This document shows, in pieces, positions 8,642 to 59,733 of a stretch of 64,000 nt of DNA; the first letter of the stretch is position 1; every line of letters begins with the position of its first letter. A program made the translations under genes and the position numbers. The stretch covers positions 310,001 to 374,000 of the forward strand of contig CAOLHI010000397.1 of the NCBI GenBank assembly GCA_948474755.1, written 5' to 3'. Under the pieces are notes generated by a model. It did no database searches, was not told the origin of the DNA, and saw nothing but the letters and a program-made list of their open reading frames with translations. The DNA comes from Ctenosaura bakeri (lineage: Eukaryota; Chordata; Lepidosauria; Squamata; Iguanidae).

Positions 8642-8821
8642 TTTTCCCTCCGCACTAGCCGGTTATAGCGCGATGATTCCACTTTCAACATCCTCTGGAA
8701 TCCTGGGGTTTGCAGTTTCGGGAGGGGCCAGCCGGCCCCTCCCGAAACTGCAAACCCCAGGATTCCAGAGGAAGTTGAAAGTGGAATCCTCGCGCTATAA
8801 CCGGCTAGTGCGGAAATGGCC
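8642..8821. mobile_element. Foldback element, palindromic form
   Basis: The two arms (CCGCACTAGCCGG and its complement CCGGCTAGTGCGG outermost) meet at GGGGCCAGCCGGCCCC near 8724-8739. They differ at about two internal positions plus a degraded left end. The AGCCGG variant occurs in both arms here and not in most other copies. It lies about 960 bp upstream of the ATOH1 start. Confidence 0.92.
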
Positions 8822-8969
8822 CCTGGGTTTGGCACATTTTTACCACGCGAGGCAACAAAACTGCAAACCCCAGGATTCCAGAGGATGTTGAAAATGGAAT
8901 CATCGCGCTATAACTGGCTAGTGCGGAAATGGCCCTGGCTTTGGCACATTTTTACCACGCGAGGCAACA
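8745..8969 (+). repeat. 112-bp tandem duplication of a foldback arm plus its 3' flank
   Basis: The right arm of the 8642 copy and about 35 bp of flank (TTTGGCACATTTTTACCACG and GAGGCAACAA) are repeated at an offset of 112 bp. The second unit begins near 8857. The units differ at several positions. At two of these (GATGTTG, CATCGCG) the second unit keeps the state found in the left arm. Confidence 0.9.
8857..8934. mobile_element. Foldback element, extra arm within the tandem duplication
   Basis: A single right arm, from CTGCAAACCCCAGG to GTGCGGAAATGGCC, created by the tandem duplication and not by independent insertion. Confidence 0.88.
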
Positions 8970-9239
8970 ATACGCAGATATACATGTTACACCCTGTCTG
9001 GACCTTCTCTTTAAAAAAAAAAAATCTCCCTCGGTTAGAGTATAAATAACAGTCATTAATAATGCTAGAGTAACGGCTCAAGTCTTTCTCAGAGACACCC
9101 CTGTGTTCTATCCTTTTTCTAAATGGAAACCTTTTCTGTCAGTTTGTCGCCTTCTCCTCCTCCTCCCCCCTCCCCCCCTCAGCTCCGGTGAGGGCCAAGA
9201 AAAAGAAAGAAAGGAAGAAAAGCCCAAACAAACGCCCAA
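8970..9239 (+). other. ATOH1 upstream flank
   Basis: An A-run near 9014-9026, a TATAAATAAC stretch with nearby TAAT cores (about 9040-9062), and a C-rich run near 9160-9180. No coding feature. Regulatory content is plausible from position only. Confidence 0.35.
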
Positions 9240-9465
9240 CCTTCGGTCTTCTGCTCCATTGGCTGCCCGCACGCGACAAGCCCCGCAAGGCTCCAATGGC
9301 TGAGCCGACACGCGACTGGCGCGAGGAGGGCGGGAGGTGGAGGGTGGGGCGCGGAGTCGGGGTGTGCGCGTGGAAAGGCGGAGGTGGAGCGGGTGGGGGA
9401 CCCCGGCGCGTGCCGCTTTTTAAAGGGGGCGCAGCGCCCTCCGCAACCGGAGAAGCCTGGTAGCA
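9240..9465 (+). promoter_or_regulatory. ATOH1: Probable ATOH1 core promoter
   Basis: Two CCAAT motifs in opposite orientation, ATTGG at 9258-9262 and CCAAT at 9293-9297, precede a GC-rich stretch. A TATA-like TTTTTAAAGG lies at 9417-9426. That order puts transcription start near 9445-9455, about 330-340 nt before the ATG at 9785. Assignment rests on motif order and position; no transcript evidence is available here. Confidence 0.5.
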
Positions 9466-9784
9466 AACGGACTGTGGTGCCTAGATGACTGGATAGCTAC
9501 AGGTGGACGTAGACACCCGCCTTTCCTTCGTAGTTTCGGCTTTTTCCCTGGCCTTTTCTCCCCTTTTATTTATTAATAATTCTTCATTATTATTTTTTTT
9601 TGCCTGAGCCCGCGTGTGGAAGAAAAAGCGCCTGGGCCCCTGCCGTCGGACGGGGGCTGGAGGGCGAGGGGCGCCTCGAGCAGCAACCCCACAGCCTGCG
9701 GCGCTCCTCCTGCCACCCCGTCGCTGAGGCCTCTCCCGCCTTTTTGGCCCCCCTCGACGGACACGCACGTCCTTCGCGGCTACC

Positions 9785-10968
9785 ATGAGCCACCTGCGCT
9801 CAGTGCCTTCGGGCCGCCCCTGGGGCGAGGGTGGCAGGGATTTGGGCTCGCAGCCGCCCCCGCCGCCGCTGGCGTCGGCAGGTGGAGCGGGAGGCGGCGA
9901 CGCTGGAGGCCGCGGGGGCGCTTTCCCCCCAGCTGGTTGGGTCTCTGCTGCCCGGGCCGCGTCCCCACTTCCTCCCCCAGGTATCTGCTCTCGGGAGCGG
10001 CTGAGGGGGACGAGGAAGACGACGACGAGGAAGAAGAGGACGAGGAGGAGGAGGAGGAGGAGGAGCTCCTGGAGGCAGGCGCGGCAGAGCGCCGTGGCGG
10101 CCACAGCCGGACTCTGAGCGACGCCTCCGGGAAGCCGCTGTGCGCCTTACAGGAGCAGCCGCCGCCGCCGCCGCCGCGCCACCGTCACCACCACAGCCAC
10201 CACCACAGCCACCACCACAGCCACCACCACAGCCACCACCCGGCCGGCGAAGCGCCGTCCCAACAGCACCAGCAGCAGCGGCCCCGCGCGCCCTGCCCCG
10301 GCCTGGGCGGCGCTCTGCTGCGCCCGGGGGCCTCCCCGCAGGTGAGCGGCGTCCAGAAGCAGAGGCGCCTGGCGGCCAACGCGCGCGAGCGGCGCCGCAT
10401 GCACGGCCTCAACCACGCCTTCGACCAGCTCCGCAACGTCATCCCCTCCTTCAACAACGACAAGAAACTCTCCAAGTACGAGACGCTCCAGATGGCGCAG
10501 ATCTACATCAGCGCCCTGGCCGACCTCCTGCAAAGCCCGCCGCCGCCGCCTCCTGCCGACGGAGGAGACCGGGGCGCCCCCTGCGGCAAGGGCCCCCTTC
10601 CGCCCGCCGGGCCGACTTACGAGCAGACGCCCTGCGCCCCGCCTGTAGGGGGCGCGCTGCAGCCACCGCCGAGGCCCCAGCCGGCGGGACACTGCCGGAC
10701 GCGCTTCCCTTCGGAGCAGCCGGCGGGGGGCGGCGGCGGAGGGGGAGGAAGTTTCTCGGTGCAGCTGGACCCGCTGCATTTCCCGTCCTTCCCGGACGGT
10801 GCCCTGCTTGGACAGAAAGCCCCATCGCCCGGCCAGCTCCTGCAACCGTCCAGCCAGCAGCAGCAGCAGCAGCAGCAGGAGCGGAGGAAACCCTCCCCGC
10901 CCGCGCATCGCAGCGACGGGGAGTTCTCGCCCCGATCCCATTACAGTGACTCTGACGAGGCCAGCTAG
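9785..10968 (+). CDS. ATOH1: Atonal bHLH transcription factor 1 (frame break near the N-terminus)
   Basis: Proneural transcription factor that pairs with E proteins and binds E-boxes in the nucleus. In vertebrates it specifies inner-ear hair cells, cerebellar granule precursors and secretory gut cells. The bHLH (10363-10533) begins [19 protein letters not shown] and continues through [20 protein letters not shown]; the basic region, loop and both helices are intact. The C-terminus [18 protein letters not shown] is the family's conserved tail, followed by TAG at 10966. A single coding exon is usual for ATOH1. The start chosen is ATG 9785 (context GCTACCATGA, protein beginning MSHL; mammalian ATOH1 begins MSRL). 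This ATG is in frame 2, while acidic, His-rich, bHLH and C-terminal parts are in frame 1, which has no ATG before the bHLH. One missing base between 9785 and about 9980 would reconcile them, giving about 394 residues against 354 in human. Lineage-specific acidic and histidine runs lie N-terminal to the bHLH. Confidence 0.96.
10184..10240 (+). repeat. ATOH1: 12-bp coding tandem repeat (CACCACCACAGC) in ATOH1
   Basis: About four to five units encode a HHHS-type histidine-rich tract N-terminal to the bHLH. A preceding GAG/GAC-rich run (about 10010-10065) encodes an almost uninterrupted acidic stretch. Human ATOH1 lacks a comparable long acidic run here. Such tandem repeats can vary in length between individuals. 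Confidence 0.85.
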
Positions 10969-12282
10969 GCTGCCGGCCGTTGGGCCGAAGGGACCGATGC
11001 CTTTCAGCCCTCACATTAGCTAGATGGGGATGGGAGGGAGAGAAAAGGGCCCGGAGCGAAGAGGGTGGCAGGTGCCTGGCCAAAGGCCAAGTGGCGGGGA
11101 TGGACCTGTGTTGCTACCTCTGAATGCGCATCACCAGCCTTGAAAGAAAACTTTTGGAGGGCTGCCGGGAATTCCCGACGCAGCTTCTCCATCTAGATGT
11201 AGCCATGGAACCTGCGCAGACCTAGAACGGTAGAGAAAGCTTTTGAATCCTGGTTTCTTCCAAACTCTGCTTGTCTTCGAAACACGCTGCTCCCCTAAAC
11301 AAGCCCGTTTAATCCCCAAGGGTCTCGCCTGCAGTCTTAGAATCTTAGCTTTTTTAAAAAAGGGGATTTTCTAGAAAGCATCTTGGAATCGAAACTCGTT
11401 TATGTAAATCTTCACTTTCCCTGCTGGAATCAGCTGTGTTGGTTATCCAACGACAGCAAAATAGATATTGAATTACAGCCTATAGGACTATGGGTAGGAT
11501 CCAGACATAGTTAAGGAGTGCTTTCTAAAAGTTCTTAACCTTGGCTGGATCCCTGCTCGAGGCGTATTAAATCCCGAAGAGTTCAGTTGGACTGAACCAC
11601 GGCGCTGTTCTCGGGCTTCAATCTAACGTCCACTAAATATCCCGGACGGTCGAACTAAAACACTTTAACCATAATGGCTTTTGCTTCCCAGTAAAGACAG
11701 GGCATTCCGGAGCATTGTTCAGTGGAATCTGCTTCCTGGTAAGTGTGCATAGAGCTGCAGCTTTGACATTTAAATCCGAAGCAGCCGTGTTATTTCGGAA
11801 GTCACTTCATGGAAGTCAGTTGGACACTTAGACCAGGGTCTCCAGGACTGGAATCTTGACGTTTAGCTTTAAGCAGAATTACTCGGAGGAAGATGTAATT
11901 TATTTCAATAGAATTTAGTGCCTCTTGAGTGTAAAACTCATTACACACCACACGATTCCGTTTAGTTTAATTCCAAGCATATCTCCGAAACCTGATTGTA
12001 CACTACCATCTAATTTCGAATTTAACAATTTAAAGGCTCCAGTCATCAAACTACTTGGTCTGGATCAGTCCCATAAACTCGAGACAATATCTGAGTCAGT
12101 CGCTCGAGGACTTTGTCTTTACTAGACGGTTGGAGAGCTTACTAGGTGGTTGTTTGCTTTCACCAACTTTCCGACGTGTGGATCCCACCTCCCCCGAGTC
12201 GTTTGGCCACGCTTTGTCCCGGAATTTCTGGCTGCATTACCTTTGCAGAGGGGGATGTGAGTTTGCGCAGGGAACAAATAAA
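10969..12282 (+). other. ATOH1: Probable ATOH1 3' UTR
   Basis: Unique, repeat-free sequence following the stop codon and running to the first well-placed AATAAA at 12277. No other gene is seen in it. A length of about 1.3 kb is plausible for this transcript, but the boundary is inferred from the signal only. Confidence 0.5.
12277..12282 (+). other. ATOH1: Candidate poly(A) signal AATAAA
   Basis: First canonical hexamer downstream of the ATOH1 stop in the sense direction. Other AATAAA motifs occur near 12917 and 13416, so the true cleavage site is uncertain. Confidence 0.4.
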
Positions 12283-12660
12283 TCCTCTAATGTACTTTAG
12301 AGCAAGTCCCTCTTGTTTACAGAAACTTCCAGGGCGCTCTGCCATACCTGTTCCGCTGGAAGGAACGCTCGCTGTATCCCGTGGACTTTCTTCCTCAATG
12401 AGGGAGTTTTAAGGACCGCACTCTTGCTCTAACCAAGCGTGCTTACGATCTGTTTCTTTCCCTGGAATTCCTTTGGAGTCGGTAGTCCGTAGATGGCCCT
12501 CCCTCTCCGTGATCCCCACAGGTCCCGTAGCCAGAGGAAGTTCGGACTTCCGCTAACGAAAGGGCAAGGCGCTTTCTGGTAGGATGGGAACGGGGTGGGG
12601 GGGGGAGAGATAGCAGCCTTCGTCGCCCAGTCTCCGCAAATCCCGAACCAGTCTCGAGAT
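12283..12660. other. Unassigned sequence between ATOH1 and a foldback element
   Basis: Moderately GC-rich unique sequence with a G-run near 12593-12606. Nothing recognised. Confidence 0.4.
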
Positions 12661-12850
12661 CAGGGCCATTTCCGCACGAGGCTGTTAGAGCGCGATGATT
12701 CCACTTTCAGCCTCCTCTGGAATCCTGGGGTTTGCAGTTTCGGGAGGGGCCGACTGGTCGGCCCCTCCCGAAACTGCAAACCCCAGGATTCCAGAGGAGG
12801 CTGAAAGTGGAATCATCGCGCTCTAACAGCCTCGTGCGGAAATGGCCCTG
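12661..12850. mobile_element. Foldback element, essentially perfect 190-bp palindrome
   Basis: Base-by-base comparison shows 12661-12754 is the exact reverse complement of 12757-12850; only the central pair (12755/12756) mismatches. Copy-specific variants (CGAGGCTGTTAGAGCG, CAGCCTCCTCTGG) occur in both arms. Pairing extends through CAG/CTG outside the GGCC end. No clear direct target duplication. It lies about 1.7 kb downstream of the ATOH1 stop. Confidence 0.97.
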
Positions 12851-13089
12851 GAGTGAAAAGCGACCTAGAGAGCGGGTGTAAGAACGTTCAGATTGTAGTA
12901 CTTTTTTACCCCTTGTAATAAAAGCAAAAAAAGCGAATTCCAGCGGCTCCCGCCCCCGAAATTTTTCTTTGAACTGTCTTCCAAACGGAATGTTAGCATC
13001 TTTGGTTGGTGGGAATATGGCCGTAAGCACTTTATAAGCCGCCGGGAGGAAAAGACGCGGCTCCCGGGAGAAAAGGGAGGCGCTGCCAA

Positions 13090-13455
13090 TTGGGCTGTAC
13101 CAATGTTGAACTCAGCCGTCGTGTTCATAGCATCGTTATTAATAATCGCCTTTTGCAAGCTGCAAAAGGAAGGGGGTAGGGATTTTGTTGTTGTGTCAAA
13201 CCTCTATGCTCTTCTTCAATTTGCCTTTTTTTTTTTTGGTGATATTTTAGATCCAGAAGGGTTATTTATTACGGAGTGTTTACTATTCGTTCTGCTTTTA
13301 TCTTTGTTCGATTGTTTTTCGATTTTTTTTAAAAAACAACTTTTTACACAAGCCATTTATTTTCACAAAGCGCGCTGCCATTGTTTATGTAACTTTTTTG
13401 AGACAGAGAGATCAAATAAACAACTTTTCAATAACATTTGTTGAGCTGGTGCTTC
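13090..13455 (+). promoter_or_regulatory. Candidate ATOH1 3' enhancer
   Basis: Repeat-free block 2.1-2.5 kb past the ATOH1 stop. It holds factor-site-like motifs: CATTGTTTATG (13379-13389, SOX-like), GAGATCAAAT (about 13408-13417, TCF/LEF-like) and TTATTAATAATCGCC (13136-13150, homeodomain-like). Mouse Atoh1 is known to be autoregulated from an enhancer roughly 3.4 kb 3' of the gene that carries SOX and TCF/LEF inputs. Position and motif content suggest this is the counterpart. No alignment was possible. Confidence 0.45.
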
Positions 13456-13742
13456 ATTGAATTCTTGATCTAAATGGTATAAAAATATTTGGGGATAGGC
13501 TCCCCCGAGGTCAGGGTAGACATGCAATAGAATCCGATGAGTGTTTGCCCGAAAGTTGGTATCACTGAGGGAGAGGGATCTTACTCTATAGTAACTGTAG
13601 TTACTAGTAAGTTAGTAGTAGTAGCATTTACTCTCTAGTGAGTCTGTTCCTAGTAACTAAGCATGAGGTCAGCCGGCCTGAAGGTAACCGAATGCGTTGG
13701 TTTTCTTTTTCAGGACCCCTATACATTTCACGAGAGTCAGGT

Positions 13743-13918
13743 CATTTCCGCACTGTAGTGTTGTAGCGCTATTATTCCACATTCAACATCCTATGGAATC
13801 CTGGGGTTTGCAGTTTCGGGAGGGGCCAGGCGGCCCCTCCCGAAACTGCAAACCCCAGTATTCCATAGGATGTTGAAAGTGGAATAATAGCGCTATAACA
13901 CTACAGTGCGGAAATGGC
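13743..13918. mobile_element. Foldback element, palindromic form
   Basis: Arms begin CATTTCCGCACTGTAGTGTT and differ at about three positions (TTGTAG against TTATAG, CACATTC against CACTTTC, and one near the centre). The CACTGTAGTG variant is shared by both arms and unlike the CACTACACTG order of other copies. Centre GGGGCCAGGCGGCCCC. Confidence 0.94.
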
Positions 13919-14098
13919 TTTAGTGTAATGGCTTGAGCGTCAGACCACGACCTTGGAGACCAGGGTTCAGTCATGTAAACCTGCTGCGTGCCCTTGGGCG
14001 CGTCACACACTCTCAGCCCCAGAAAACCCCGTGATAGGTTCGTCTTAGGGTCACCATAAGTCGGAAACGATTTGCAGGTACACTGTTAGTAATAACAA
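13919..14098 (+). mobile_element. tRNA-derived SINE with BovB-like tail
   Basis: Head TAATGGCTTGAGCGTCAGAC, B-box-like GGTTCAGTC, middle CTTGGGCGCGTCACACACT, tail CACCATAAGTCGGAAACGAT and an AATAACAACAC end. It directly abuts the foldback element at 13918. Comparatively young, since CpGs are retained. Confidence 0.85.
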
Positions 14099-15160: not shown

Positions 15161-15184
15161 AAGATGTGGCTGTGCCCAAAAAAG

Positions 15185-15262
15185 TTTGGAGATCTGGGAT
15201 TACAACTCCCAGAATCCCCGAGGTAGTTGTGCTGGGAGGTGTAGTCCCCAAAAGTAACTTTT
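15185..15262. repeat. Short inverted repeat of the ACAACTCCCAGAATCCCC family
   Basis: ACAACTCCCAGAATCCCC is followed about 25 bp later by GGGAGGTGTAGTCCC, its near reverse complement. Related pieces occur near 21060-21290, 21640-21720, 49430-49565 and 57640-57700. Confidence 0.6.
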
Positions 15263-16945: not shown

Positions 16946-16974
16946 ACTGCCAGGGTTGTTGTAAGGCAGGATTG

Positions 16975-20002: not shown

Positions 20003-20075
20003 GATTTGACTGTGGAAGGGTGAATCCACACCTAACTCAGTCCCATGGATTAAATGAGCCATTTAAATAGGCCAT

Positions 20076-20207
20076 TTCCACACTAGCTTGTTATAGGGCT
20101 ATTACTCCATTTCCAACATCCTAGGGAATCCTGGGGTTTGCAGTTTAGGGAGGGGCCTCAAGGCCCCAGGATTCCCTAGGATGTTGGAAGTGGAATAACA
20201 GCACTAT
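20076..20207. mobile_element. Foldback element, older copy split by a younger one
   Basis: Left arm GGCCATTTCCACACTAGCTT to GTTTAGGGAGGGGCC, short centre CTCAA, then a right arm lacking its inner part and ending GCACTAT. There the next foldback copy begins, so the younger element landed in the right arm of this one. Both arms share the CTAGGGAATCC variant. Confidence 0.85.
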
Positions 20208-20390
20208 GTCCATTTCCGCACTAGCCTGTTATAGCGCGATGATTCCACTTTCAACATCCTCTGGAATCCTGGGGTTTGCAGTTTCGGGAGGGGCCGGACG
20301 GCCCTCCCGAAACTGCAAACCCCAGGATTCCAGAGGATGTTGAAAGTGGAATCATCGCGCTATAACAGGCTAGTGCGGAAATGGACATAG
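20204..20390. mobile_element. Foldback element, near-perfect palindrome nested in an older copy
   Basis: The arms are identical except for one base missing from a C run at the centre (GGCCGGACGGCC). Complementarity continues past the element end: CTATGTCC on the left pairs with GGACATAG on the right. Both termini carry GTCC in place of the family GGCC, so even this terminal change is matched in both arms. Confidence 0.96.
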
Positions 20391-20399
20391 AGAACTAAG

Positions 20400-23642: not shown

Positions 23643-23843
23643 GGCCATTTCTGCACTACGCTATTACAGTGCTATTAGTCCACTCCCAACTCCTATGGAG
23701 TCTTGGGATTTGCCCTTTAGGGATTTGCCCTTTAGAATTCTCAGCCAGAGAGCTCTTTGGCCCAGTAAAGGACAAGCCCCAGAATTCCACAGGATATTGG
23801 AAGTGGAATAATAGCACTATAACAATATATTGCAGAAATGGCC
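23643..23843. mobile_element. Foldback element, long asymmetric form
   Basis: GGCC ends, about 201 bp. The centre is the asymmetric AGAATTCTCAGCCAGAGAGC then TCTTTGGCCCAGTAAAGG and not a palindrome. The arms match imperfectly. A short internal duplication (GGGATTTGCCCTTTA twice) is specific to this copy. Confidence 0.88.
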
Positions 23844-23934
23844 CTGATCTTGAGCTCTGCCACGTGTAACCCCAGCACTCTAGCCCTTAGTCCTCAATAG
23901 CACGTGGAATGAACAACGACAACAACACAACGTT

Positions 23935-24105
23935 GGCCATTTCCGCACTACACTCTTATAGCGCGATGATTCCACTTTCAACATCCTATGGAATCCTGGG
24001 GTTTGCAGTTTCGGGGGGGGCCCTCCCGAAACTGCAAACCCCAGGATTCCATTGGATGTTGAAAGTGGAATCATCGCGCTATAAGAGTGTAGTGCGGAAA
24101 TGGCC
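23935..24105. mobile_element. Foldback element, palindromic form
   Basis: Arms identical except one base (CCTATGG against CCAATGG) and a contracted centre (CGGGGGGGGCCCTCCCG). The CACTACACTCTTATAGCG variant is in both arms. AACGTT lies immediately outside both ends; because it is itself palindromic, it could be a direct duplication or extended pairing. Confidence 0.95.
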
Positions 24106-24289
24106 AACGTTTAAAGGGAACTAAAGTTTTTCGCCACTCAGGATTGCCCTCCACAGCCAAGAACGGGTGGGATGGGGAGGGAGGGATCCATATGTTTAAT
24201 TGTTTAATTTTAAATGGGCCTTGAGCGCACCAAGAAAAAAAACCAGCGGGGTCCGTTTCCATTCTAAAGTTCTGCTCGGGCGTTGACAT

Positions 24290-24855: not shown

Positions 24856-25035
24856 GGCCATTTCCGCACTAGGCTGTTCTAGCGCGATGATTCCACTTTC
24901 AACCTCCTCTGGAATCCTGGGGTTTGCAGTTTCGGGAGGGGCCGTCCGGCCCCTCCCGAAACTGCAAACCCCAGGATTCCAGAGGAGGTTGAAAGTGGAA
25001 TCATCGCGCTAGAACAGCCTAGTGCGGAAATGGCC
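24856..25035. mobile_element. Foldback element, essentially perfect 180-bp palindrome
   Basis: 89-bp arms with no mismatch; only the central pair of GCCGTCCGGC fails to match. Arm-specific variants CTAGGCTGTTCTAGCG and CAACCTCCTCTGG are present on both sides. Confidence 0.97.
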
Positions 25036-25191: not shown

Positions 25192-25380
25192 GCCCATTTC
25201 CGCACTACCCTGTTGTAGTGCTATGATTCCACTTTCAACATCCTATGGAATCCCAGGGTTTGCAGCTTGGGGAGGGGCATTTAGAATTTTCAGCCAGAGA
25301 GCTCTTTGGCCTCAGTAAACTGCGCAGAATTCCTTAGGATGTTGAAAGAAAAGCACTGTAACAGTGTAGGACAGAAATCC
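25192..25380. mobile_element. Foldback element, long asymmetric form, decayed
   Basis: Left arm CCCATTTCCGCACTACCCTG to CAGCTTGGGGAGGGGCATTT, asymmetric centre TCAGCCAGAGAGCTCTTTGG, then a right arm with a deletion (GTTGAAAGAAAAGCACTGTA) ending GACAGAAATCC. Confidence 0.88.
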
Positions 25381-26277
25381 TTGATTTCTCACATATTTGA
25401 AGGTAATCAAAGTTTGGAAAAAGGGCTACAGAATCCCTGCGCACAGTGGCTAGGGGATGCCAGGAGCTGTAGCTGGGAGTGCAATTCAGGCTGTATGCAC
25501 ACTTTCCTGGGAGTAAAAGCCACACTGAACAAAACGAACACCTTGCCCATGGAACACAGTGAAGCTTTCTTCCAAGTGGTCGAGCATGTTTAAATAAAGC
25601 AGCATCGGGCCTTTACTTAAAAATGAACTTCCCCTTGCCTAATTACTCAGAAGTAAATCCGCTTGAGCTTAATTAGACTAATTCTAGGTAGGTAAGCAAA
25701 GAAATGTAGGCTTCTGGAAAACAAAGCAGGCTTATTTGGATTGGAAGTGAAATTCTATGGAAAGATGACAGGGGCTTTGGCTGTAGTCCTATTTTAGAGT
25801 TGGTTAGAAAGGGGGGAAAAACCCCTGTGGGATTAGGGGTGTGACTGTTTAGTAAGTAGGATCAAGCTCCCCGTTTCCAAGAAAAAATAGTTTGACGCGT
25901 GTTCGATTTGAACCTTGGGAGTGTTCTGTCACTTGAGAACAGTTTTCACGAATGATAGCCACTGAGGAATTCTGTTTTTCTTTTTTTAAAAAAGGCTTTT
26001 TAGTCAGTGAGGCAGAGCATAGTTGGACCATGTTAACACTTGGCTGAGCTGGGCATCAGAGTGTGAAATGAGTCACGCTCTCTTTGTACTTGTGTGAAAC
26101 TTTCAGTGGTTTTATCGATCCAAGCACGTTTCTTTGCATTGTGGGAGGAAGTTGTGTAGGTTGTTTCAGATCTTGGTGGGTGGGGAAGGCTCAAAGCAAT
26201 AGCCCTCCATGGTGGAATTTTCAGGCCTTTATGAACTGAACAGCAATCTGCTTGAATGGTTTGTATGCAAGATTATT
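25381..26277. other. Unassigned sequence
   Basis: A short block near 25635-25690 (CTCAGAAGTAAATC with TTAATTAGACTAATTCTAGG) resembles small reptile interspersed repeats. No gene recognised. Confidence 0.4.
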
Positions 26278-26698
26278 GGCTTTTTCCGCACTTTGTAGGA
26301 CAAAGAGCAGTCTGGACTCAATGCCTGAAATCACTTGGTTCGTGAGCTGTCTGTGCCTAGGAGTACAGACCCCGGAGATGAAATGGTAGCGCTTTGGTTT
26401 GGTGGAGGCTGTCCCGGCAATAGGAGAATCTTATCCAGCCTGTTGGTCCCTCAGTATTAGACTCAACACCAGCAGTCTTTGCAAAACTTGTACAGAGTGA
26501 GGCCCTTGAGTCACCCTTGTAGCAATAGGTCCTCTTTTAATCGGTCTTTCAATAGCACAGGCAGCCACCAGTTCTGGGCGTTCCGGAGCGGGCTGAAGTC
26601 CGGACAAACAGTAAGTAGTCCGAACCCAGTTCGCCCCCAAGTGTGAATGTCCTTGTGGGAATGAACAGCCATTTCAAAAATAAAATGCGGAAAAGGCC
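26278..26698. mobile_element. Non-autonomous DNA transposon with GGCCTTTTCCGCA ends
   Basis: GGCTTTTTCCGCACTTTGT at the left is the near inverse of AAAATGCGGAAAAGGCC at the right, enclosing about 421 bp with no transposase. The terminal core GGCC-TTTCCGCA closely resembles the foldback family ends and the elements at 49979 and 59737. Outer flanks ATTATT/ATAATT do not form a clean duplication. Confidence 0.7.
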
Positions 26699-30062: not shown

Positions 30063-30227
30063 GCCCATTTCTGCACTAGACTGTTCTAGTGCTATTATTC
30101 CACTTTCAACATCCTGTGGAATTCTGGGGTTTGCAGTTGAGGGAGGGGCCTTTGAGGCAAGCCCCAGGATTCCATAGGATGTTGAAAGTGGAATCATAGC
30201 ACTGTAACGGCCTAGTGCTGAATGGCC
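30063..30227. mobile_element. Foldback element, shortened form
   Basis: Arms of the family joined by a short centre (GAGGGAGGGGCCTTTGAGGC). Part of the right inner arm is missing. The flanks CAGAG and CAGAT are close to a 5-bp duplication. Confidence 0.85.
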
Positions 30228-31853: not shown

Positions 31854-32054
31854 AGCCACTTCTGCACTATACCGTTATAGTGCTATTGTTTCATTTTGAA
31901 CATTTTATGGAATCCTGGGGCTTGCAGTTTAGGGAGGGGCGTTTAGAATTCTCAGCCAGAGAGCTCTTTGGCCTCAGGAAGGGACAAACCCCAGAATTCC
32001 ACAGGATGTTGAAAATGGAATAATAGCACTATAACAGTGTAGTGTGGAAATGGC
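31854..32054. mobile_element. Foldback element, long asymmetric form
   Basis: Arms GCCACTTCTGCACTATACCG and the inverse of GTGTAGTGTGGAAATGGC, with the asymmetric centre GTTTAGAATTCTCAGCCAGA then GAGCTCTTTGGCCTCAGG. Arms diverged. Confidence 0.88.
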
Positions 32055-32179
32055 ACTAGATTACTTCACAACATGCCTACTGTTGCTTATGCATTCGAAG
32101 GTACAACTGTAAGAATAACATGGCCCGTGCAAGGTGTCTTAAGTGTTTCTTTCAAACTGCGATGCTTCTACAGTGGCAT

Positions 32180-32615
32180 TGTTGTGTGTTGTTGTTATGT
32201 ATCTTCAAGTCAACTCAGACATGCCCAGTCACCCTATTGTAGCGTTTTCTTGGCAAGTTTTATTCACAGGAGGTTGCCACTGCCTTCCTTTGAAGCTGAG
32301 AGACTATGGTAGTTTCCGCACTAGCCTGTTATAGCGCTGTTATTCCACTTTCAACATCCTATGGAATCTTGGGGTTTGCAGTTTAGGGAGGGGCCACTTG
32401 GCTCCTCCCTAAACTGCAAACCTCGGGATTCCATAGGATGTTGAAAGTGGAATAATAGCGCTATAACAGGCTAGTGCGGAAATACCCTATGACTTGCCCA
32501 AGATGACTCATAGGGTTTCCAGGCCAAGCAGGGATTTGAATTATGGTCTCCCAGAGTTCTTCCAATAGCAAACCACTGCACTGCGTTGGCTCACTGGCAC
32601 TACTGTACCTGATGG
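32180..32615 (-). mobile_element. tRNA-derived SINE split by a foldback insertion
   Basis: Reverse-oriented SINE: tail TATCTTCAAGTCAACTCAGA, body TTTTCTTGGCAAG and GCCACTGCCTTCCTTTG, ending GAGACTATG. It resumes at CTATGACTTGCCCAAGATGA and GGGATTTGAATTATGGTCTC. The two halves join into the order seen in intact copies, so 32309-32486 was inserted later. Confidence 0.88.
32309..32486. mobile_element. Foldback element with a defined 5-bp target duplication
   Basis: 178-bp palindromic form with termini GTAGTTTCCGC and GCGGAAATACC and a few arm mismatches. CTATG at 32304-32308 is repeated at 32487-32491. Because the host SINE reads through as GACTATGACTTGCCC once one CTATG is removed, the duplication is reliable. 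Confidence 0.95.
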
Positions 32616-40680: not shown

Positions 40681-40860
40681 GGCCATTTCCGCACTACGCT
40701 GTTATAGTGCAATTATTCCACTTTCAACATCCTATGGAATCCTGGGGTTTGCAGTTTGGGGAGGGGCCAAGTGGCCCCTCCCCAAACTGCAAACCCCAGA
40801 ATTCCGTAGGATGTTGAAAGTGGAATAATCGCGCTATAACAGCGTAGTGTGGAAATGGCC
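40681..40860. mobile_element. Foldback element, palindromic form, 180 bp
   Basis: Complete GGCCATTTCC...GGAAATGGCC element with about five arm mismatches, mostly CG/TG-type changes. The variants CTACGCTG and GTTTGGGGAGGGG occur in both arms. Centre GGGGCCAAGTGGCCCC. Confidence 0.95.
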
Positions 40861-41847: not shown

Positions 41848-42420
41848 CATATTCTCCAATATTTCACAAATGAAAACTGAGGGCCTTTCCACACTATACT
41901 GATATAGTGCTATGATTCCACTTTCAACATCCTGTGGAATTCTGAGGTTAGTAGTTTACTGAGGCCAAAGAGCTCATTGGCTGAGAATTCTAAATGCCCC
42001 ACCCTAAACTGCAAACCCCAGGATTCCATAGGATGTTCAAAGTGGAATGATAGCACTATAACAGTGTGGTGCAGAAAGGCCCTGAGACATGTATGGCCAA
42101 GCAACATCAGAATATGGTCAAGATGGCAAAAGTTATTATTAAGGAAGAGAACAAAAGCTATGAGGGGCTGCCGCAGTTTGCTTTTGCCTGAATCAACAGA
42201 GAAAGGCCAGAATCCACTCCTTCCTCTCCTCGCCCCCTGCTGAGTTGATGTAGACTAATTTGCACTTTAAACTCTATTTGCAGCAACTAAAGTAAGCTGA
42301 GGACAAAGGGGGAAAGTGGGAGGAGGAGAGAGAAACGGGGATATTGAAAAAGTGGACAGCAAAGGCTTAGTAGACACTAACTCTGTCAAATTGGGACAGT
42401 TGGAAGGTAGGGAATGGGTG
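41848..42420 (+). mobile_element. ATACCCTCCAAC-family repeat, copy 2, split by a foldback insertion
   Basis: CTCCAATATTTCACAAATGA then AAACTGAG, interrupted by 41882-42081, and resuming CTGAGACATGTATGGCCAAG. The intact copy at 55722 reads AAAACTGGGACATGTGTGGC through this point, so the host sequence and insertion order are clear. Right end GGGACAGTTGGAAGG. Confidence 0.8.
41882..42081. mobile_element. Foldback element, long form, with 5-bp target duplication CTGAG
   Basis: 200-bp asymmetric form. CTGAG at 41877-41881 is repeated at 42082-42086, and the uninterrupted host repeat carries a single such site. Inner order: GTAGTTTACTGAGGCC, AAAGAGCTCATTGGCTGAGA, then CTAAATGCCCC and ACCCTAAACTGC. 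Confidence 0.95.
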
Positions 42421-49405: not shown

Positions 49406-49429
49406 ATACGTGGACAGAACTTGAAAAAA

Positions 49430-49978: not shown

Positions 49979-50417
49979 GGCCCTTTTCGCATGGGCTTTC
50001 TCTTGCAAAATAGCCCTGTGAGCCTCGCAGGAGTGGGAGCGTCACTCTGCACGACGCAGTCCCACTTCCGCGGCGCCCACGGGGCTGAAGCGGCGCGAGC
50101 GCGGATTTTTTTATTTTCGGCTTGAAGAGAAAATAAACGGTGCTCACGCAAGGCTCCCGGCGGCGTCCCGCAATTACTGGAGTGCGGAGCGCCGTCGCAG
50201 GCGGGCCTGTCGCGCTTCCTCCCCGCTTCTGCCCCTGCGGCGCCTACAGCTCCCAGGGGGCTCTGCGGAAGCTGGAGGCATGGCTGAAAAGTGCCCGTCG
50301 CGCAAGAAGGCTCCACGTGTGGTAAGGAGGCGGGGGGAAGCGGCGGCATTGAAGGAGAGGGTTCTCGCGTGAACCGCCCTCCTCCATCGCGCAAGCGCTG
50401 GCGCTGCGAAAAGGGCC
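49979..50417. mobile_element. GC-rich non-autonomous DNA transposon posing as a CpG island
   Basis: GGCCCTTTTCGCA at 49979 and TGCGAAAAGGGCC ending 50417 are perfect 13-bp inverted repeats enclosing CpG-dense DNA. The flank ACT/ACT offers only a weak duplication. The internal frames of up to 154 codons are GC artefacts. Ends resemble those of 26278-26698, 59737-60202 and the foldback family. Confidence 0.78.
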
Positions 50418-50718: not shown

Positions 50719-50920
50719 GGCCATTTCTACACTACACTGTTAGAATGCTATTATTCCACTTTCAACATCCCGTGGAATTCTGGGGTTTGTAGTTTACTGA
50801 GGCCAAAGAGTTCTCTGGCTGAGAATTCTAAATGCCCCTCCCTAAACTGCAAACCCCAGGATTCCATAGTATGTTCAAAGCGGAATGATAGCATTATAAC
50901 AGTGTGGTGCAGAAATGGCC
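50719..50920. mobile_element. Foldback element, long asymmetric form
   Basis: 202 bp with GGCC ends. Inner arm X reads GGAATTCTGGGGTTTGTAGT then TTACTGAGGCCAAAGAG; arm Y reads GCCCCTCCCTAAACTGC then AAACCCCAGGATTCC. This is the clearest copy for showing that palindromic forms are arm Y plus inverted arm Y. Flanks TAACTTA and ACAGTTA are partly inverse. Confidence 0.92.
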
Positions 50921-52850: not shown

Positions 52851-55122
52851 AAAGCTGATTTTACTGTATGATGCCCTGCACAGAGGTAGGGCAAGATATA
52901 AATATCTAAATAAATAATAATATAGAACAGCAGTCTAGCCAACTGCCTCAAACGAAGCACAGGTTCATCTATTGTTGGAATCAGAACACAACAATCCTAT
53001 CTTGTTACACACCACAGTCTTGCAGGCCAGCCTATACACTAGTGGAGAGAAACATGCATCATTTCAGAAGTTGTTGGACTGGAACACCTGGCTATCCTCA
53101 GTATTGGCTGTGTTAGCTAAGACCACTGGGAATTGCAATCCAGCTACATCTGGAGGGCTGCCTGATTCCCACCCTTGCTTTATAACAATGCCTTATCAGT
53201 CTTCTGCTTTCATTGTCCTTTCTCTCCCTGTTGATTTGGAACTCTTGTATCTTTCACAGCACCTATGGCAGTAATTTTGGGACAATACTTAAGTTACAGA
53301 ATACTATACAGTTCCTTGAGTCAAGAACAATGCTTCTCAAAATGGTGGTCCAGAGCCCAGTGCCAGTCCACCAGCCATTGGCTGTCATTCCCTGTCAAAT
53401 TTGCAGGAAAAGAAAAGTAACAGTTGCAGTCAGTGGACACAAATATGGTACCAGCTCCTGGTATACTGACAAAAAATGATTGCCAGCCACCCACAGTGAA
53501 GTAATTACAGGAGTCTTACAGCACAGAACATGGCCAATACTTGGTTGTGACTCTGTCTTTTAGGGGAAGATTAGATAGCTGTGTGATCAAGAGTTTTTTT
53601 TTTTTTAATGTGTATGTTTGCAAATTTTAGGGTTACCACAAGCATACTGATACACAATGGCCTTGTTTCAGCTTCTTTTCTGTTACCACTCACCTTCTGA
53701 GTTTGAGAGAAGGGGTGAGTGTTGTTGCATCTCCCACCATTCCCACTGGCTGTGCTCAGTAGGACTGATGGAAGTTGCAATTCTCTCCCCTTTATTAAAG
53801 AAAGCGATGTTTAGTCTTACCATTATTAGAAAGATATAGAAAATGTCACTTCATATTGGTATTTGTATGCATAGTAATACTTATCATTTTAAAAAAATCA
53901 TCAACAAAAAAGGTTCTATGACTTTTGATCTAGTAAGTTCACATGCCAATTTGCTCTGAGTCCTTCTTTACATAAACACAGTCTGAGAATGGATGCTTTC
54001 ATACAGAGTTGTTACTAGGTGTCAGATACATATTTAATGTGGTTTCATTATATCCTATAAATGTTGGCATTAGAATCATCTCCCCAGGGGATGTGTGTGA
54101 ATAAGAGAATGAGAAAATGATGAACAAGCCTAGCACACGTCCCCTTGACTTCATGATAAAAGCCAGCATCTCCCCGTACAACACCTGTTGCTAGAGCTGG
54201 GTTAATTACTTTTCATTGTCGTCAACTGCCTGAAATATTTATTGCCCTGACTGATAATTTCCCCCAAATCTGAAGTGCAACACCCAGAAAAACAACAAAG
54301 TCCTCCAGTTTGGAGTGTGTGAGTGCATGTGCGTTTTTCTGAATGTTAAAGTTCACACATTTAGTTTTAAGATGTGGCTCAGGATAAAGACAAATGCGAA
54401 AGACACTTAAACATTTCTATGGAAAATGATGGTTTAGATGTGTGTGTGGGGGGGAGTCAATATTCTATTAGAGAGATACCAAGTTGTTACACAGGTGACA
54501 AACTGCTATGGAGTACAGAAGAAACAGTTGCACAGTTCCATTCCATAGGCAGCCTGTTAGCCCTGGAGTGTCATTCAAAGTTCTAGAGCTCACATTGGGT
54601 GGGATCTATTTCGGAGCCGGAAGAAGGGGTCAGTATCATCAGCTATCTCCTGAGACTTACATGCTATCAGGTGTCCACTGGAAACTCTGCTAATCCTGCT
54701 GGAGCTCCTCTTTGCTGTTACTTTCTGTTCACCTGCCCCCTCTGAGCATGACAAGACTGCAAGGAGCAAGGCAGCTTCCTTTCCTCTTTCTTTTTGCCTG
54801 TGCAATGTCATTGATGGCATTAAGAGGAAGACCGCAGATATATGGGGTCCAGTCACAGTGACAAACTTAGAGGCAAATCAGATGTCTTTTGAAATGTTGG
54901 ACTTCAACTCCCATCATCCAGCATGGGGATGCAACAACCATCAAAGTTTCCTCACCCATCATTCAGTATGGGGAGGCAAGGACATCAGGTCCAAGGATTA
55001 CCTTTGACCTCCTGACCTCTGTGGTATGCATTTGCCTGTTTTTCAAAATCCCAAGCCTCTTCCCCACTTAAGCTAATACCCTGTTCAGGGCATGCTTCTG
55101 TGGACAGACATATATACAAATA
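52851..55122. other. Unassigned sequence with decayed short repeats
   Basis: About 52855-52925 resembles an L2 tail (ATGATGCCCTGCACAGAGG then TAAATAAATAATAATA). About 53065-53190 and 53715-53790 carry the GGACTGGAACACCTGG/CATTCCCACTGGCTGTG short repeat. No gene recognised. Confidence 0.45.
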
Positions 55123-55133
55123 GAGTGTGTGTG

Positions 55134-55170
<37 letters not shown>
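55123..55170. repeat. (GT)n microsatellite
   Basis: Around 20 GT units with a TATATAT interruption. Confidence 0.9.
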
Positions 55171-55172
<2 letters not shown>

Positions 55173-55381
55173 GAGCGAGGGAGAAAAGTAATGACAATGC
55201 AAAACATGGTTCTGTGTTAGTAAGTATGCCTTAATGACTGTAAAGAGTAGTTAAAAGGACAAAAATGAGACACAGGTTTTGAATGCAAGCATAGTTAAGC
55301 AGGTGAATACAGGTATACTGGAGAAGAGTCTTTGTCTTGCTTGTACACAAAATCTTCCTCCCACTTTTGTTCTTCTAACCA

Positions 55382-55382
55382 G

Positions 55383-55422
<40 letters not shown>

Positions 55423-55495
55423 GTGCCTTCAAGTCATTTCTGACTTATAGTGGCTCTAAGGCAAATCTGTCATGGAGTTTTCTGGGGGCTGAGTG
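55382..55495 (-). mobile_element. tRNA-derived SINE tail fragment with (TTG)n
   Basis: A (TTG)n tract of about 14 units (the reverse of the SINE's CAA tail) runs into TGCCTTCAAGTCATTTCTGA and CTTATAGTGG, then stops at GTTTTCTGGGGGCTGAG. The SINE head is missing. Confidence 0.85.
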
Positions 55496-55721
55496 TGTGA
55501 TGCATTCAAGAGCACTCAGTGGGTTTCCAGTCTTTACCACCATCCTTAAGACATACTTGTCATCACACCAACATGACTTGCATTCCATTCTACTTTATAC
55601 TCACCTTTCCTGCCTTCCTTAATGTATGTCTCCCTCCAGACACTTCCCTCCATGCATTTGATGAAATGGAGTCCACAAAAACTTAATGCTAAAATAAATC
55701 AGTTATATGTCCCTCCCTCCC
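55496..55721. other. Unassigned sequence
   Basis: Nothing recognised. Confidence 0.4.
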
Positions 55722-56030
55722 AACATTTCACAGATGAAAACTGGGACATGTGTGGCTGAGAAACATCAGAGTGTGGTCAGGGTGGCAAAAGTTATTAGTG
55801 AAAATAATGCAAGCTAGGAGAGACTACAGCTGTTTGCTTTTGCCTGAGTCTTCAGGGAAGGGCAAGATTCTGTCCCTCTTGTTCTCTTCCTCTTGATAAG
55901 GTCATTTGGTGCAACTGAAGTAAGCTGAGGACAAAGTGGGAGAATGAGAGAGAAACTGCTAGACTTTTAAAGCAGAAAAAAAAAGGGAACAGAGGATTAA
56001 TTAGGGATGCCCCTATCAGTTGGGGCAGTT
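55722..56030 (+). mobile_element. ATACCCTCCAAC-family repeat, copy 3 (uninterrupted)
   Basis: CCCTCCCAACATTTCACAGA, AAACTGGGACATGTGTGG, GGTGGCAAAAGTTATTAGTG and GGGGCAGTTGGAGG. This copy gives the empty-site sequence for the foldback insertion at 41882. Confidence 0.75.
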
Positions 56031-56339
56031 GGAGGTTATTCAGTAAATCCCAAATGGGTTGCTGCTTTCTTTTATGCACTTTTATATTAAAGCAGACTAA
56101 CATGGCTATCTCTTTGATTACTAAGTCTCAGTAGGTTTGTCAAAACTGGTTCACAAATGTGCATTTTAAAGCAAAAAGCCTACAAAAATTTAAAGTGACT
56201 GTTGAGTAGAAACCCAAAGTATTTGACTGATTGAATTTAAACCCTACTATGGTGGTCTCAGTCTCATGAAATAACATGCCAAGTTTGATGACTCTGTGAT
56301 CAAGCATGAGAACTTATATATTACAAGGACAAGCACACT

Positions 56340-57293
56340 TGTTACCATATTACAAAAGGACAAGCACTGTTGTTACCATTCCATACACCCCCACCCCATG
56401 ATATAATTGACAAGGAATATTATTTAATTGGCACTAAATATGAATGATACATTTATGGCTGGGGAGCCATGTTGGCAAAGAAGACTGGCTGGACACGTGC
56501 AAAATTAGGTCAGAGGGGACCTCATGGCATGGCTGGGTCATAAGTTCACTGAGGGTTAGTAGGAGAAGATGGTCCTCTCAGCCATCCAAACCTAGAAGAT
56601 AATAGCCATCAGAGCTCCCAGAGAAAGCAACAGTGACCAGCATCCTGTAATCTCATTCCTGCTGAATGTCTCCCATTGTTCCCTTACCTGCTCAGACATT
56701 AAGAAGCTATCATGATTCCCGTTAATGCTTTGTTACCTAATGCTAAGACTATTAGCCAGCTCCAGACCCCTTTGTTTACTCTGTCAGAGAGCCACTGACA
56801 CCTTCTCCTTCGAGGGAGAAGGAGGGTATAAAAACCCTAACTCCAGTCCAGGAGTTTGCAGTATGCAAATTTGCAACATGTGACATTCTAGCATTTGGGC
56901 ATCATGTTGCACCCCAGACTCTCATTATTCTGTGCTGCCCTCAAGGTCTTGTGTTTGAGCCATCTTGCCTCAATCTTCTTTTCTTCAAGGTTGGTAAATA
57001 TCGCTCACTTTGTCCTAACAACTCACTATCCAGTGTTTCTGTCCTTTGCTTCTGTTAGCCTTGTATGGTTTATGTGACTGTTTGATTGCTTGCTTATGTG
57101 TGATTTCCCCCCAATAAAACATTCTTTTGATCTCCAACTGGTATTTCTCGGTTAGCATTGGCAAACACAAGTGAAAATATCTCGCACTTACCCCTCTCTT
57201 GCTGGTGTCCTTTGATCAATAATTCCCCATCTTTCCATGGAGGCACTGGCATTGCAAGTGGACCCCTGAGTCACCCACCTTTCGGGGGTAACA
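56340..57293 (+). mobile_element. LTR (probable solo LTR), second family, full length
   Basis: Starts TGTTACC and ends GGGGGTAACA. TATAAAAA at 56827 and AATAAA at 57113-57118 are about 290 nt apart, giving U3-R-U5 order. The 5' boundary is uncertain because a roughly 24-bp stretch (ATTACAA-GGACAAGCAC-TGTTACCAT) is tandemly duplicated there, so the start could be 56340 or about 56361. No retroviral genes adjoin it. Confidence 0.75.
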
Positions 57294-59549
57294 CTCTAAG
57301 TTAGACACACACACACACACAATTTTTAAAGCCTGTTCTGGATCCCAGAAGGATGCAGTCAATCACACTTAAGAATACATATTTATTAGTGTATCTAACA
57401 AAATAGGTATATATTAGTATACTATGTCAAGATATTTTGGCTTGCTTGAAAAAGAAGCAGATGAAAATAGAAGAAGTTGAAATGTCTTGACATAATATTC
57501 AAATATTTCTGTTGTGTTAGTCACTCTAACCCCTTCCAGAAACTAGAGCAGACTTGGTGCTTTACGATTATCTGTGCCTTTCTCTTTCTCCCCTCTTCTG
57601 CTTCCAGACAAGTAAAGTAATAGATACAGAATTATGAAAAGTTATTTTGTGGACTACAAATCCCAAAATCCCTCAGCCAGCTTCTGGTAGTCCAAAAATG
57701 TAATTTCCCAAATTCTGGATGAATATGCAGCTATGTTTATGTATCAGTCAGTGAATATCATGCCAATCAAACACATTTTTATTGTGTATCTTAAAATCTG
57801 ACCAGTATTTAACAACTTCACTAAATATAAGTTGTTATCAGTTTTTTTTTTCTAATAATTAATAGGAGGCTAAAATTGGGTGTGTTTTAATTTTTTTGAA
57901 AGGTGATTATCAAAACTTTTTTTGCTACTAAAATCATATTGGTTTTATTACTGCAAATGATTATGAAATGGTTAATTAAATTAAATCATTACAATGAATA
58001 AATCCATCAAAGGAATAGGTTAGATGTTTGTATGGAATTAGTTGAAAAGTTGTTTCTTCATATTGTATATTGGAATACTCAGTATAGTATAAACTTGGAA
58101 AGGGATTTCTTTTTGCAGATATACTAGGAAAACAGAATATTTCCTCGATTAAAAAATCCAGAGAGAAAACTATTATTTGATAATATGTTAAAGGAATGCA
58201 TAGATTATATGAAGCTGTACATGATAGATAATATTTGAATAAACCAATGCCTAGCATAGAGGATAGCTACATTTAAAAACAAAATAAGCTTTTTTTAAAA
58301 AAAATGTTGATGAGATGTCAGTTAGATAGACAGTTATTCATGGATCTGTGTTATATCTATGTCTAAGGAGAATTTGATTGACAGTAGAGTTTGTTACTGA
58401 GGACAAAGGTCAGAATTTCACTGGCAAATTAACAATAGACCCTTTTCTTTACAAAAAGGCACACATACAGCAATATAAATATAATGCAGAACTTTGAAAT
58501 CTCATGACACAACCCCACACAAAGTGCGGGGACACATATTTACACAAAACACCATGCCACTGAAAACTCTCTCAAGCTTTGTTGCACCTATATTAGGAAG
58601 GGAACTGAAATATCACATGGAAATATTACATTCAAGATCAACATAATCTGAATCATGTTTGTGTGTTGTTATACTTTAGGTTTATAAAGAATGCCACGGG
58701 AGTGTTACAGCCACTGTTTGCCTGTGAACTGTTGCAGTTTTACACTGGGAACCTGGTAGGAGGAGAGATAGAATCCATTATCCAGAATATTTCCAGTTCT
58801 CTTTCCCACATTCACAAACCTGATCAGGTTTACTCAGAAGTAAGTAACCACTTTATCACTAGGGCTTACTCCTTTGTAAATGTGCTTAGGACAGCAGTTT
58901 CATTCAATGACCAACTTAAATCTGTGTCACTATGTGTCACTGTGTCACTTAAATCTGTGTAAGCGAGACTTTTTATTTTTCTGTAGCAAAGTAAAAGAAA
59001 AAGATTTCAACTTTCTGATGCTTGTATTGTACATCCAACAACCTGGGTTGGGAGAAGTAAAACAAACATCACATCATATACTTTGTTTTTTGACATCCAG
59101 AATAATTATTGCTTTAAAAGATGTGATATAGAAAGGAAACGACAGGAGCTAAAACACTCTTTGCCTTGCCCCTTTTTTCAACCACTGCATTTCTCTTCTA
59201 ACTCAGGAGACATCAGAGACAGTGTATATGTTTTGAGTTAAGGATGCTTTCACATGGACTTTGCTGCCAGATAGATTAGTAGATGATTATGACCTCAGAA
59301 GGTGGTAGTTGTATGAGATTCTATTAGAGCAAAAGGTAATATGAATGCTAAACTTGAGGGCTTCCCACTGAGTAAGAACACTTCTCCCTGCTTGTCCAAA
59401 TACAAATATGGGGTCTGTTGAAAAGAGCAAACACTTTGTTATGAGTTTCACTGGTTTGCCCATTGACTCTACACTGAATGAGATCCCATATTGATTCTTT
59501 TTCTCCCCCTTCCTCACAAAAAAATCTAAATTGCTAACCTTGCAACTAA
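57294..59549. other. Unassigned AT-rich sequence
   Basis: (CA)n at about 57307-57321. A GGACTACAAATCCCAAAATCC short repeat at 57652-57700. A frame at 58663-58962 has no recognised domain. No gene assigned. Confidence 0.4.
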
Positions 59550-59733
59550 GGCCATTTCTGCATTAGACTGTTATAGTGTTATTATTCCACTTTCAACATC
59601 CTATGGAATCCAGGGGTTTGCAGTATCGGGAGGGGCCAGCCGGCTGGCCCCTCCCAAAACTGCAAACCCCAGGATTCCATAGGATGTTGAAAGTGGAATC
59701 ATAGCGCTATAGCAGTGTCGTGCGGAAATGGCC
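59550..59733. mobile_element. Foldback element, palindromic form
   Basis: GGCCATTTCTGCATTAGACT to GTCGTGCGGAAATGGCC, centre GGGGCCAGCCGGCTGGCCCC. Older than most palindromes, with around ten arm mismatches. It touches the next transposon, and CTAAG precedes it. Confidence 0.9.

What the first reader, a model, noticed from the sequence alone, without database searches (positions are those of the whole stretch)
8642..59733. Foldback element family in which the two arms of each copy share private variants
At least 19 loci in 64 kb end in GGCCATTTCCGCAC-type termini. In palindromic copies the arms match each other better than they match other copies. Between CCGCAC and GCG the variants are: TAGCCGGTTATA (8642), GAGGCTGTTAGA (12661), TAGCCTGTTATA (20204), TACACTCTTATA (23935), TAGGCTGTTCTA (24856), each present in both arms. 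Independent mutation of two arms cannot produce this. It requires arm-to-arm rewriting: gene conversion, hairpin-templated repair, or a replication step that makes one arm from the other at or near each transposition.
Basis: partly seen in the sequence, partly recalled or inferred. Interest (0 to 1): 0.9.

Follow-up and report, generated by a model that had tools for sequence, protein, structure and literature searches.

The report
Mirror-image transposons whose arms co-evolve
A very common, roughly 180-letter mirror-image DNA element in this probably vertebrate genome carries the same letter changes in both of its halves, subfamily by subfamily, most likely because one half is copied from the other in the breeding copies before they spread, whereas a sister form with a lopsided middle does not show this.

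Summary
The sequence observation is right; "private to each copy" is not. The window holds about 19 loci of a 3-bp-TSD (PIF/Harbinger-like) MITE. In 9 palindromic copies arms differ by 4.4%, copies by 10.7% (0 of 100,000 permutations). It holds in 13 sampled copies outside the window: 8.3% against 14.3%, 0 of 20,000. A sister class with a non-palindromic centre is a natural negative control: 19 copies, 19.2% within, 19.5% between. Two of the five "private" variants were searched genome-wide: the 12664 variant is in 63 arms, 48 of them forming 24 both-arm copies; the 24856 variant in 108 arms, 100 listed, 72 of them forming 36. These are young subfamilies, not single-copy events. Paired changes do not rise with arm age, CpG-decayed arms have no matching partner (4 arms), and a duplicated copy shows no transfer since duplication. 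So rewriting most likely happens in source lineages before spread. Arm homogenisation of inverted repeats is a known process; this is a new, unusually clean member with a built-in control.

The parts
12664..12847 (.). palindromic (AA) copy, 184 bp, arms identical, centre GACTGGTC; variant GAGGCTGTTAGA in both arms
   Evidence: DNA hairpin -130.8 kcal/mol, z -31; 63 arms with this variant genome-wide
20208..20386. palindromic copy, 0/80 arm differences (1/81, at the centre), centre GGAC; begins inside the right arm of the older element at 20070
24856..25035 (.). palindromic copy, arms identical, centre GTCC; variant TAGGCTGTTCTA in both arms
   Evidence: 108 arms genome-wide
23935..24105. palindromic copy, 3/81 arm differences (2/79), shortened centre; TACACTCTTATA in both arms
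8642..8821 (.). palindromic copy, centre AGCC; outer 7 bases of the left arm are not family sequence
8853..8934 (-). second copy of the 8642 right arm, from a tandem duplication with its flank
13740..13919 (.). palindromic copy, 3/81 arm differences, centre AGGC, TGTAGTGTT in both arms
32308..32487 (.). palindromic copy, 5/81 arm differences, centre ACTT, TSD TAT
40681..40860 (.). palindromic copy, 5/81 arm differences, centre AAGT, TSD TTG
59550..59733 (.). palindromic copy with drifted arms (11/81), centre AGCCGGCT
23643..23843 (+). asymmetric (A arm + B arm) sister element, TSD CTG
25192..25382 (+). asymmetric (AB) sister element
31854..32055 (+). asymmetric (AB) sister element, 202 bp
41881..42082 (-). 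asymmetric (BA) sister element, 202 bp, TSD TGA
50719..50920 (-). asymmetric (BA) sister element, 202 bp
30063..30227. internally deleted copy, TSD AGA, class unclear (asymmetric set, AA by diagnostics, dropped)
1249..1337 (-). half element: one arm ending at the centre
20070..20207 (+). older copy whose right arm is interrupted by the 20208 element

Best explanation
These palindromes are a non-autonomous, likely PIF/Harbinger-type transposon family whose two arms carry the same variants subfamily by subfamily, most likely because a source copy's one arm is rewritten from the other through a hairpin (snap-back synthesis, template switching or mismatch repair of the folded stem) before that copy spreads. 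Shown: the arm-sharing, its absence in the asymmetric sister class, the subfamily scale of two variants, and arms that differ in the more diverged copies. Inferred: an A-plus-B ancestor lost its B arm to an inverted copy of the A arm, giving two near-identical 90-bp arms around a 4-nt tip, which would fold almost perfectly. A mutation in one arm of a mobile source copy is then either copied to the partner arm or erased. The tip stays (4-nt loops are shared by copies with different arm variants) or shifts by a few bases, and the rewritten palindrome founds a new subfamily. Once inserted, arms would mostly accumulate separate mutations. The exact chemistry, and whether it is tied to excision repair or to replication, is not determined.
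For: Window: 9 palindromes, within 0.044, between 0.107, 0/100,000 permutations. Pooled: 22 of 30 palindromes used, 0.065 against 0.130, 0/20,000; the 13 outside the window alone, 0.083 against 0.143, 0/20,000. Control class: 19 AB elements, 0.192 against 0.195, 4457/20,000. In a tree, arms are sister in 9/22 AA and 0/19 AB copies, and 18/19 B arms fall in one clade (support 0.76) without any A or AA arm, so AA arms are A-type. Copies 12664, 20208 and 24856 carry 12 paired and 0 one-arm departures from the pooled consensus over columns 7-83. Genome: 24 both-arm copies and 15 lone arms for one variant; 36 and 28 for another (100 of 108 arms listed). Timing: paired changes do not rise with one-arm divergence (Spearman -0.21, P 0.36); widening the 12664 variant to its CpG-decay forms adds 4 arms to 63, none with a matching partner; since the tandem duplication at 8642 each duplicate right arm gained 2 changes, none shared with the left arm. 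Tip: loops shared between copies with different arms (GGAC/GTCC, ACTT/AAGT, AGGC/GCCT, AGCC three times), and the tips of 12664 and 59550 read as a loop partly copied into its own complement.
Against: Subfamily inheritance means the number of independent rewriting events is smaller than the number of copies and was not counted. One-arm changes exist inside a young subfamily: of the 15 lone arms of the 12664 variant at least 3 (C196, C280, C319) have a partner end that matches only with one mismatch (100 of 275 places listed, letters withheld). The window-only result that paired changes are transversion-rich and concentrated 14-24 bp from the end (2/18 transitions against 17/27, P 0.0007; 11/18 in the block against 4/27, P 0.003) weakened in the larger sample (12/28 against 76/114, P 0.03; 11/28 against 22/114, P 0.04; neither significant for paired changes seen in one copy), so it is poor evidence on mechanism. 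59550 has arms as far apart as different copies. Three near-perfect copies (12664, 20208, 23935) have inverted rather than direct flanking triplets, which would suit rewriting in place that overshot the end; pooled 4 of 49, P 0.007. Genome-wide, 0 of 100 listed ends (308 in all) in one test formed such a pair, but that test has no measured denominator. The timing evidence is thin: 4 decayed arms, one duplicated locus, one non-significant correlation.
Confidence: 0.62

Rival explanations
1. Arms are rewritten continuously in place, after insertion, by replication template switching in the extruded hairpin.
For: Inverted repeats are known template-switch substrates (PMC8604942 introduction; PMC8794818 passages). 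Inverted flanking triplets beside three near-perfect copies look like overshoot.
Against: No rise of paired changes with age; 59550 uncorrected despite a perfect centre; no transfer at the duplicated 8642 locus; the 4 CpG-decayed arms have no matching partner; no inverted-triplet pair among 100 listed ends.
Confidence: 0.14
2. The palindrome is not corrected but remade: a half element (one arm) is duplicated head-to-head, for example by fusion of broken sister chromatids or fold-back priming, founding each subfamily anew.
For: A half element exists in the window (1249), lone arms are common (15 of 39 copies of one variant, though at least 3 have a diverged partner), and tips differ between copies.
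Against: Copies with the same 4-nt loop in direct or complementary form carry different paired arm variants, so arms changed while the tip stayed; 4-nt matches can be chance.
Confidence: 0.15
3. Compensatory selection: the hairpin (as DNA or RNA) is needed for spread, so only copies with matched arms amplify.
For: Copies with identical arms belong to young-looking subfamilies; hairpin energy is extreme.
Against: The asymmetric class also spread with arms 19% apart today; selection alone must wait for the matching second mutation each time.
Confidence: 0.05
4. Assembly artefact: one arm mirrored onto the other.
For: Palindromes are hard to sequence (recalled).
Against: Arms of many copies differ, flanks are not mirrored beyond 6 bases in the window, and the same variant pair recurs at dozens of places.
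Confidence: 0.02

Closest known systems
PIF/Harbinger (PHIS) non-autonomous elements / Tourist-like MITEs; NuwaII target C|TNA|G (PMC4482050, passages)
   Same: 3-bp target duplication in 22 of 49 elements, C before and G after it in 18 of 22 each; short; PF13359 transposases abundant in the same genome
   Different: nearly perfect 90-bp palindrome; no transposase-bearing element with this terminus was identified, so membership is by signature only
Inverted-repeat arm homogenisation by template switching (PMC8604942 abstract and introduction; PMC8794818 passages)
   Same: two arms of one inverted repeat become identical while the spacer persists or is inverted
   Different: those papers treat repeats and hairpins in genes; here it is a multicopy mobile family with an asymmetric sister class as control
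Galileo foldback transposon, Drosophila (PMC3573991, passages)
   Same: 98-100% identity between the TIRs of one copy, and conversion between TIRs is proposed there
   Different: P superfamily, long TIRs that resemble Foldback
Angel elements of zebrafish (Izsvak and colleagues, recalled, not read)
   Same: recalled as short palindromic vertebrate elements for which a hairpin-based amplification model was proposed
   Different: not compared at sequence level
Tm1 Mutator/foldback, root-knot nematodes (PMC3169594, passages)
   Same: foldback structure with similar TIRs inside a copy (93.15% on average)
   Different: 9-bp target duplication, different superfamily

Membership tests
PIF/Harbinger (PHIS) superfamily | 3-bp target site duplication | tested here: met
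   22 of 49 elements exact, chance P 6e-27
PIF/Harbinger (PHIS) superfamily | target of a described group (NuwaII C|TNA|G) | tested here: inconclusive
   C at -4 and G at +4 in 18/22 each, T first in 15/22, but A third in only 8/22
PIF/Harbinger (PHIS) superfamily | DDE_Tnp_4-type transposase in the genome | tested here: met
   150 scored of 632 candidates, all 150 over the cut-off, most without a stop
PIF/Harbinger (PHIS) superfamily | an autonomous element with the same termini | not tested
MITE | short, terminal inverted repeats, high copy number, no transposase | tested here: met
   43 of 49 elements are 162-205 bp long and the rest 124-220 bp, too short for a transposase (reading frames were not searched); 57,285 exact 14-bp termini in 1.9 Gb, reversed control 0
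Foldback / Galileo (P superfamily) | P-superfamily target duplication (7 bp, recalled) | tested here: not met
   duplication is 3 bp
template-switch homogenised inverted repeats | arms of one repeat identical at positions that vary between copies | tested here: met
template-switch homogenised inverted repeats | spacer inversion | tested here: inconclusive
   loops occur in both orientations but insertion orientation gives the same

The most novel reading that the evidence does not exclude
Arm rewriting is part of the family's amplification cycle: each productive round passes through a folded single strand or snap-back repair product in which one arm templates the other, so palindromes repair themselves, can convert an asymmetric parent into a palindrome in one step, and found new paired-variant subfamilies at high rate.
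Probability: 0.15. Interest if true: 0.85.

Novelty: new member of a known kind. Interest (0 to 1): 0.5.

Why it matters
How short palindromic elements stay palindromic while spreading is an old question. This genome offers a natural experiment: two sister classes with the same A arm, one palindromic and one with an asymmetric centre, in which arms co-evolve only in the first. With tens of thousands of termini in one genome, the rate, tract length and timing of arm rewriting could be measured from sequence alone.

Tried and rejected
Exact-pattern scans of viral contigs and genome contigs found nothing, as expected for a eukaryotic element. In nine paper searches (up to 16 titles listed each, of 16, 0, 27, 62, 15, 44, 105, 14 and 10 papers) I saw no title on this family. 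That is not proof of absence: most subscription papers are not held, and no repeat library was available. Passages of PMC4405373 and PMC4561436 were looked at and not used.

Considered and dropped: a private variant per copy; inverted flanking triplets as a general footprint of rewriting in place (4 of 49 pooled, then 0 pairs in 100 listed ends of 308); a distinct mutation spectrum of paired changes as mechanism evidence (weakened in the larger sample).

Rows dropped by hand before the AA test: 8 of 30 AA elements (shortened copies L015_6842, L015_5788, L004_191, W_30063, L028_4199, L018_4350; L009_8221, of AB length but with a gapped diagnostic; L027_7111, 41% diverged). Two comparable shortened copies (L020_1832, L024_7527) were kept. 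Before that, W_20070 (interrupted) and L021_9881 (cut by the end of the fetched stretch) were left out, and 17 unpaired hits were not used. Scripts stopped with errors; their job was done.
Full report
What is there. The window lies at G000:C397:310001-374000 of a 1.9-Gb assembly. It encodes a bHLH protein (PF00010) that I recognise from memory as ATOH1-like; "probably vertebrate" rests on that. Forty matches to the terminus GGCCATTTCCGCAC stand against 3.36 expected. A profile of the arms finds about 19 loci. Genome-wide the exact 14-mer occurs 28,551 + 28,734 times, the reversed control 0 (the tool calls counts of repeats lower bounds). Elements are short and carry a 3-bp target duplication: 22 of 49 pooled elements have an exact direct triplet, P 6e-27, with C before and G after it in 18 of 22 each. 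That fits PIF/Harbinger (PHIS) elements, which PMC4482050 (passages) describes as typically 3-bp, with one group at C|TNA|G. The genome holds many DDE_Tnp_4 transposases (150 scored of 632 candidates), but I could not show that any carries this terminus.

Two classes. Asymmetric elements (about 202 bp, 'AB') have an A arm and a B arm that differ at fixed positions and enclose a non-palindromic centre. Palindromic elements (about 180 bp, 'AA') have an A arm and an inverted A arm, mostly around a 4-nt tip. In a tree of arms, 18 of 19 B arms form a clade (support 0.76) holding no A or AA arm, so AA copies look like AB copies whose B arm was replaced by an inverted A arm.

All five quoted variants are in both arms. 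Within-copy against between-copy arm distance: window AA 0.044 against 0.107 (9 copies, 0 of 100,000 permutations); window asymmetric set 0.228 against 0.207 (6 copies, one of them of unclear class, 87,712 of 100,000). I then fetched 300 kb from ten other contigs of the same genome. Of 49 pooled elements, 22 of 30 AA copies were used (8 dropped by hand, see Tried and rejected): 0.065 against 0.130, 0 of 20,000. The 13 outside the window alone: 0.083 against 0.143, 0 of 20,000. The 19 AB copies: 0.192 against 0.195, 4,457 of 20,000. Arm-sharing is therefore real, not local to the window, and limited to the palindromic class in this sample. It is not universal: only 9 of 22 AA copies have arms closer to each other than to every other copy's right arm, and 59550 has 11 of 81 differences.

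Private or inherited. The 12664 variant (17-mer) occurs in 63 arms on 39 contigs; 48 of them form 24 pairs, 15 stand alone, and at least 3 of those 15 have a partner end one mismatch away (partial list). The 24856 variant (25-mer) occurs in 108 arms; of 100 listed, 72 form 36 pairs and 28 stand alone. The 20208 variant, behind the one flanking triplet ATA, already gives 308 arms. The C of the 23935 variant is paired in 5 of 22 sampled copies. So these are subfamilies of paired-arm palindromes. Spacing inside one variant varies (12664: 11 of 24 pairs at 135, 3 at 139, 3 at 134, 7 at other values; 24856: 24 of 36 at 127), so the centre is labile while the arms stay the same.

When. Three results, each thin, speak for before insertion. 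Paired changes do not increase with one-arm divergence (Spearman -0.21, P 0.36). Widening the 12664 variant to its CpG-decay forms adds 4 arms to 63, none with a partner matching the widened pattern. At 8642 a tandem duplication copied the right arm; since then each duplicate gained two changes and none is shared with the left arm. Copies 12664, 20208 and 24856 carry 12 paired and 0 one-arm departures from the pooled consensus, so in mobile lineages rewriting seems to outpace point mutation.

Against, or undecided. Near-perfect copies 12664, 20208 and 23935 have inverted, not direct, flanking triplets (CAG/CTG, TAT/ATA, GTT/AAC), as if an arm had been rewritten past its end. Pooled this is 4 of 49 (P 0.007; the fourth, L025_981, is an AB element), but no such pair occurs among 100 listed of 308 ATA-flanked ends. 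Without the matching TAT search the denominator is unknown, so I leave it unexplained. The transversion-rich, clustered pattern of paired changes in the window shrank in the larger sample.

Mechanism. Commitment: hairpin-templated arm rewriting in source copies before spread. 12664 is predicted to fold into a hairpin of -130.8 kcal/mol. Tips suit a fold-back process that keeps or slightly shifts the turning point: GGAC/GTCC, ACTT/AAGT, AGGC/GCCT and AGCC are shared by copies with different arms, and the two 184-bp palindromes among the 23 copies have tips (GACTGGTC, AGCCGGCT) that read as a loop partly copied into its own complement. Snap-back synthesis, template switching, stem mismatch repair and remaking from a half element are not separated.

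Known or new. PMC8604942 (introduction) states that inverted repeats tend to homogenise and names template switching as a mechanism. PMC8794818 (passages) reports patterns consistent with it for RNA-gene hairpins. PMC3573991 (passages) gives 98-100% identity between the TIRs of a Galileo copy and proposes conversion. So the process is known; the family is new to me and offers an internal control. Score: new member of a known kind, interest 0.5.

Noticed in passing
window 9616-10968: Open frame with an HLH domain (PF00010) whose bHLH and C-terminus resemble ATOH1 from memory; four copies of one young-looking variant group (8642, 12664, 20208, 24856) lie in a 16.4-kb stretch around it.
   Followed up: partly
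window 12661-12850, 20204-20390, 23929-24111: Flanking triplets are reverse complements of each other instead of a direct duplication in three near-perfect palindromes.
   Followed up: partly
window 59550-60202: Palindrome 59550 abuts a 466-bp element at 59737 with only AGG between; TAA flanks the pair on both outer sides, as if the two moved as one.
   Followed up: no
window about 8747-8970: Tandem duplication that starts inside the right arm of the 8642 palindrome and includes about 36 bp of flank.
   Followed up: yes
window 26278-26698, 49979-50417, 59737-60202: Longer elements (421-466 bp) with a similar GGCC..CGCA or GGCC..CTCA terminus; 49979 has a direct ACT duplication.
   Followed up: partly
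G000:C76:237320-238054: Five same-strand ends with spacings of 140, 282, 140 and 140 bp: an apparent tandem array of half elements.
   Followed up: no
window 20070-20386: A palindrome begins inside the right arm of an older palindrome, whose outer end was not found on the other side.
   Followed up: partly
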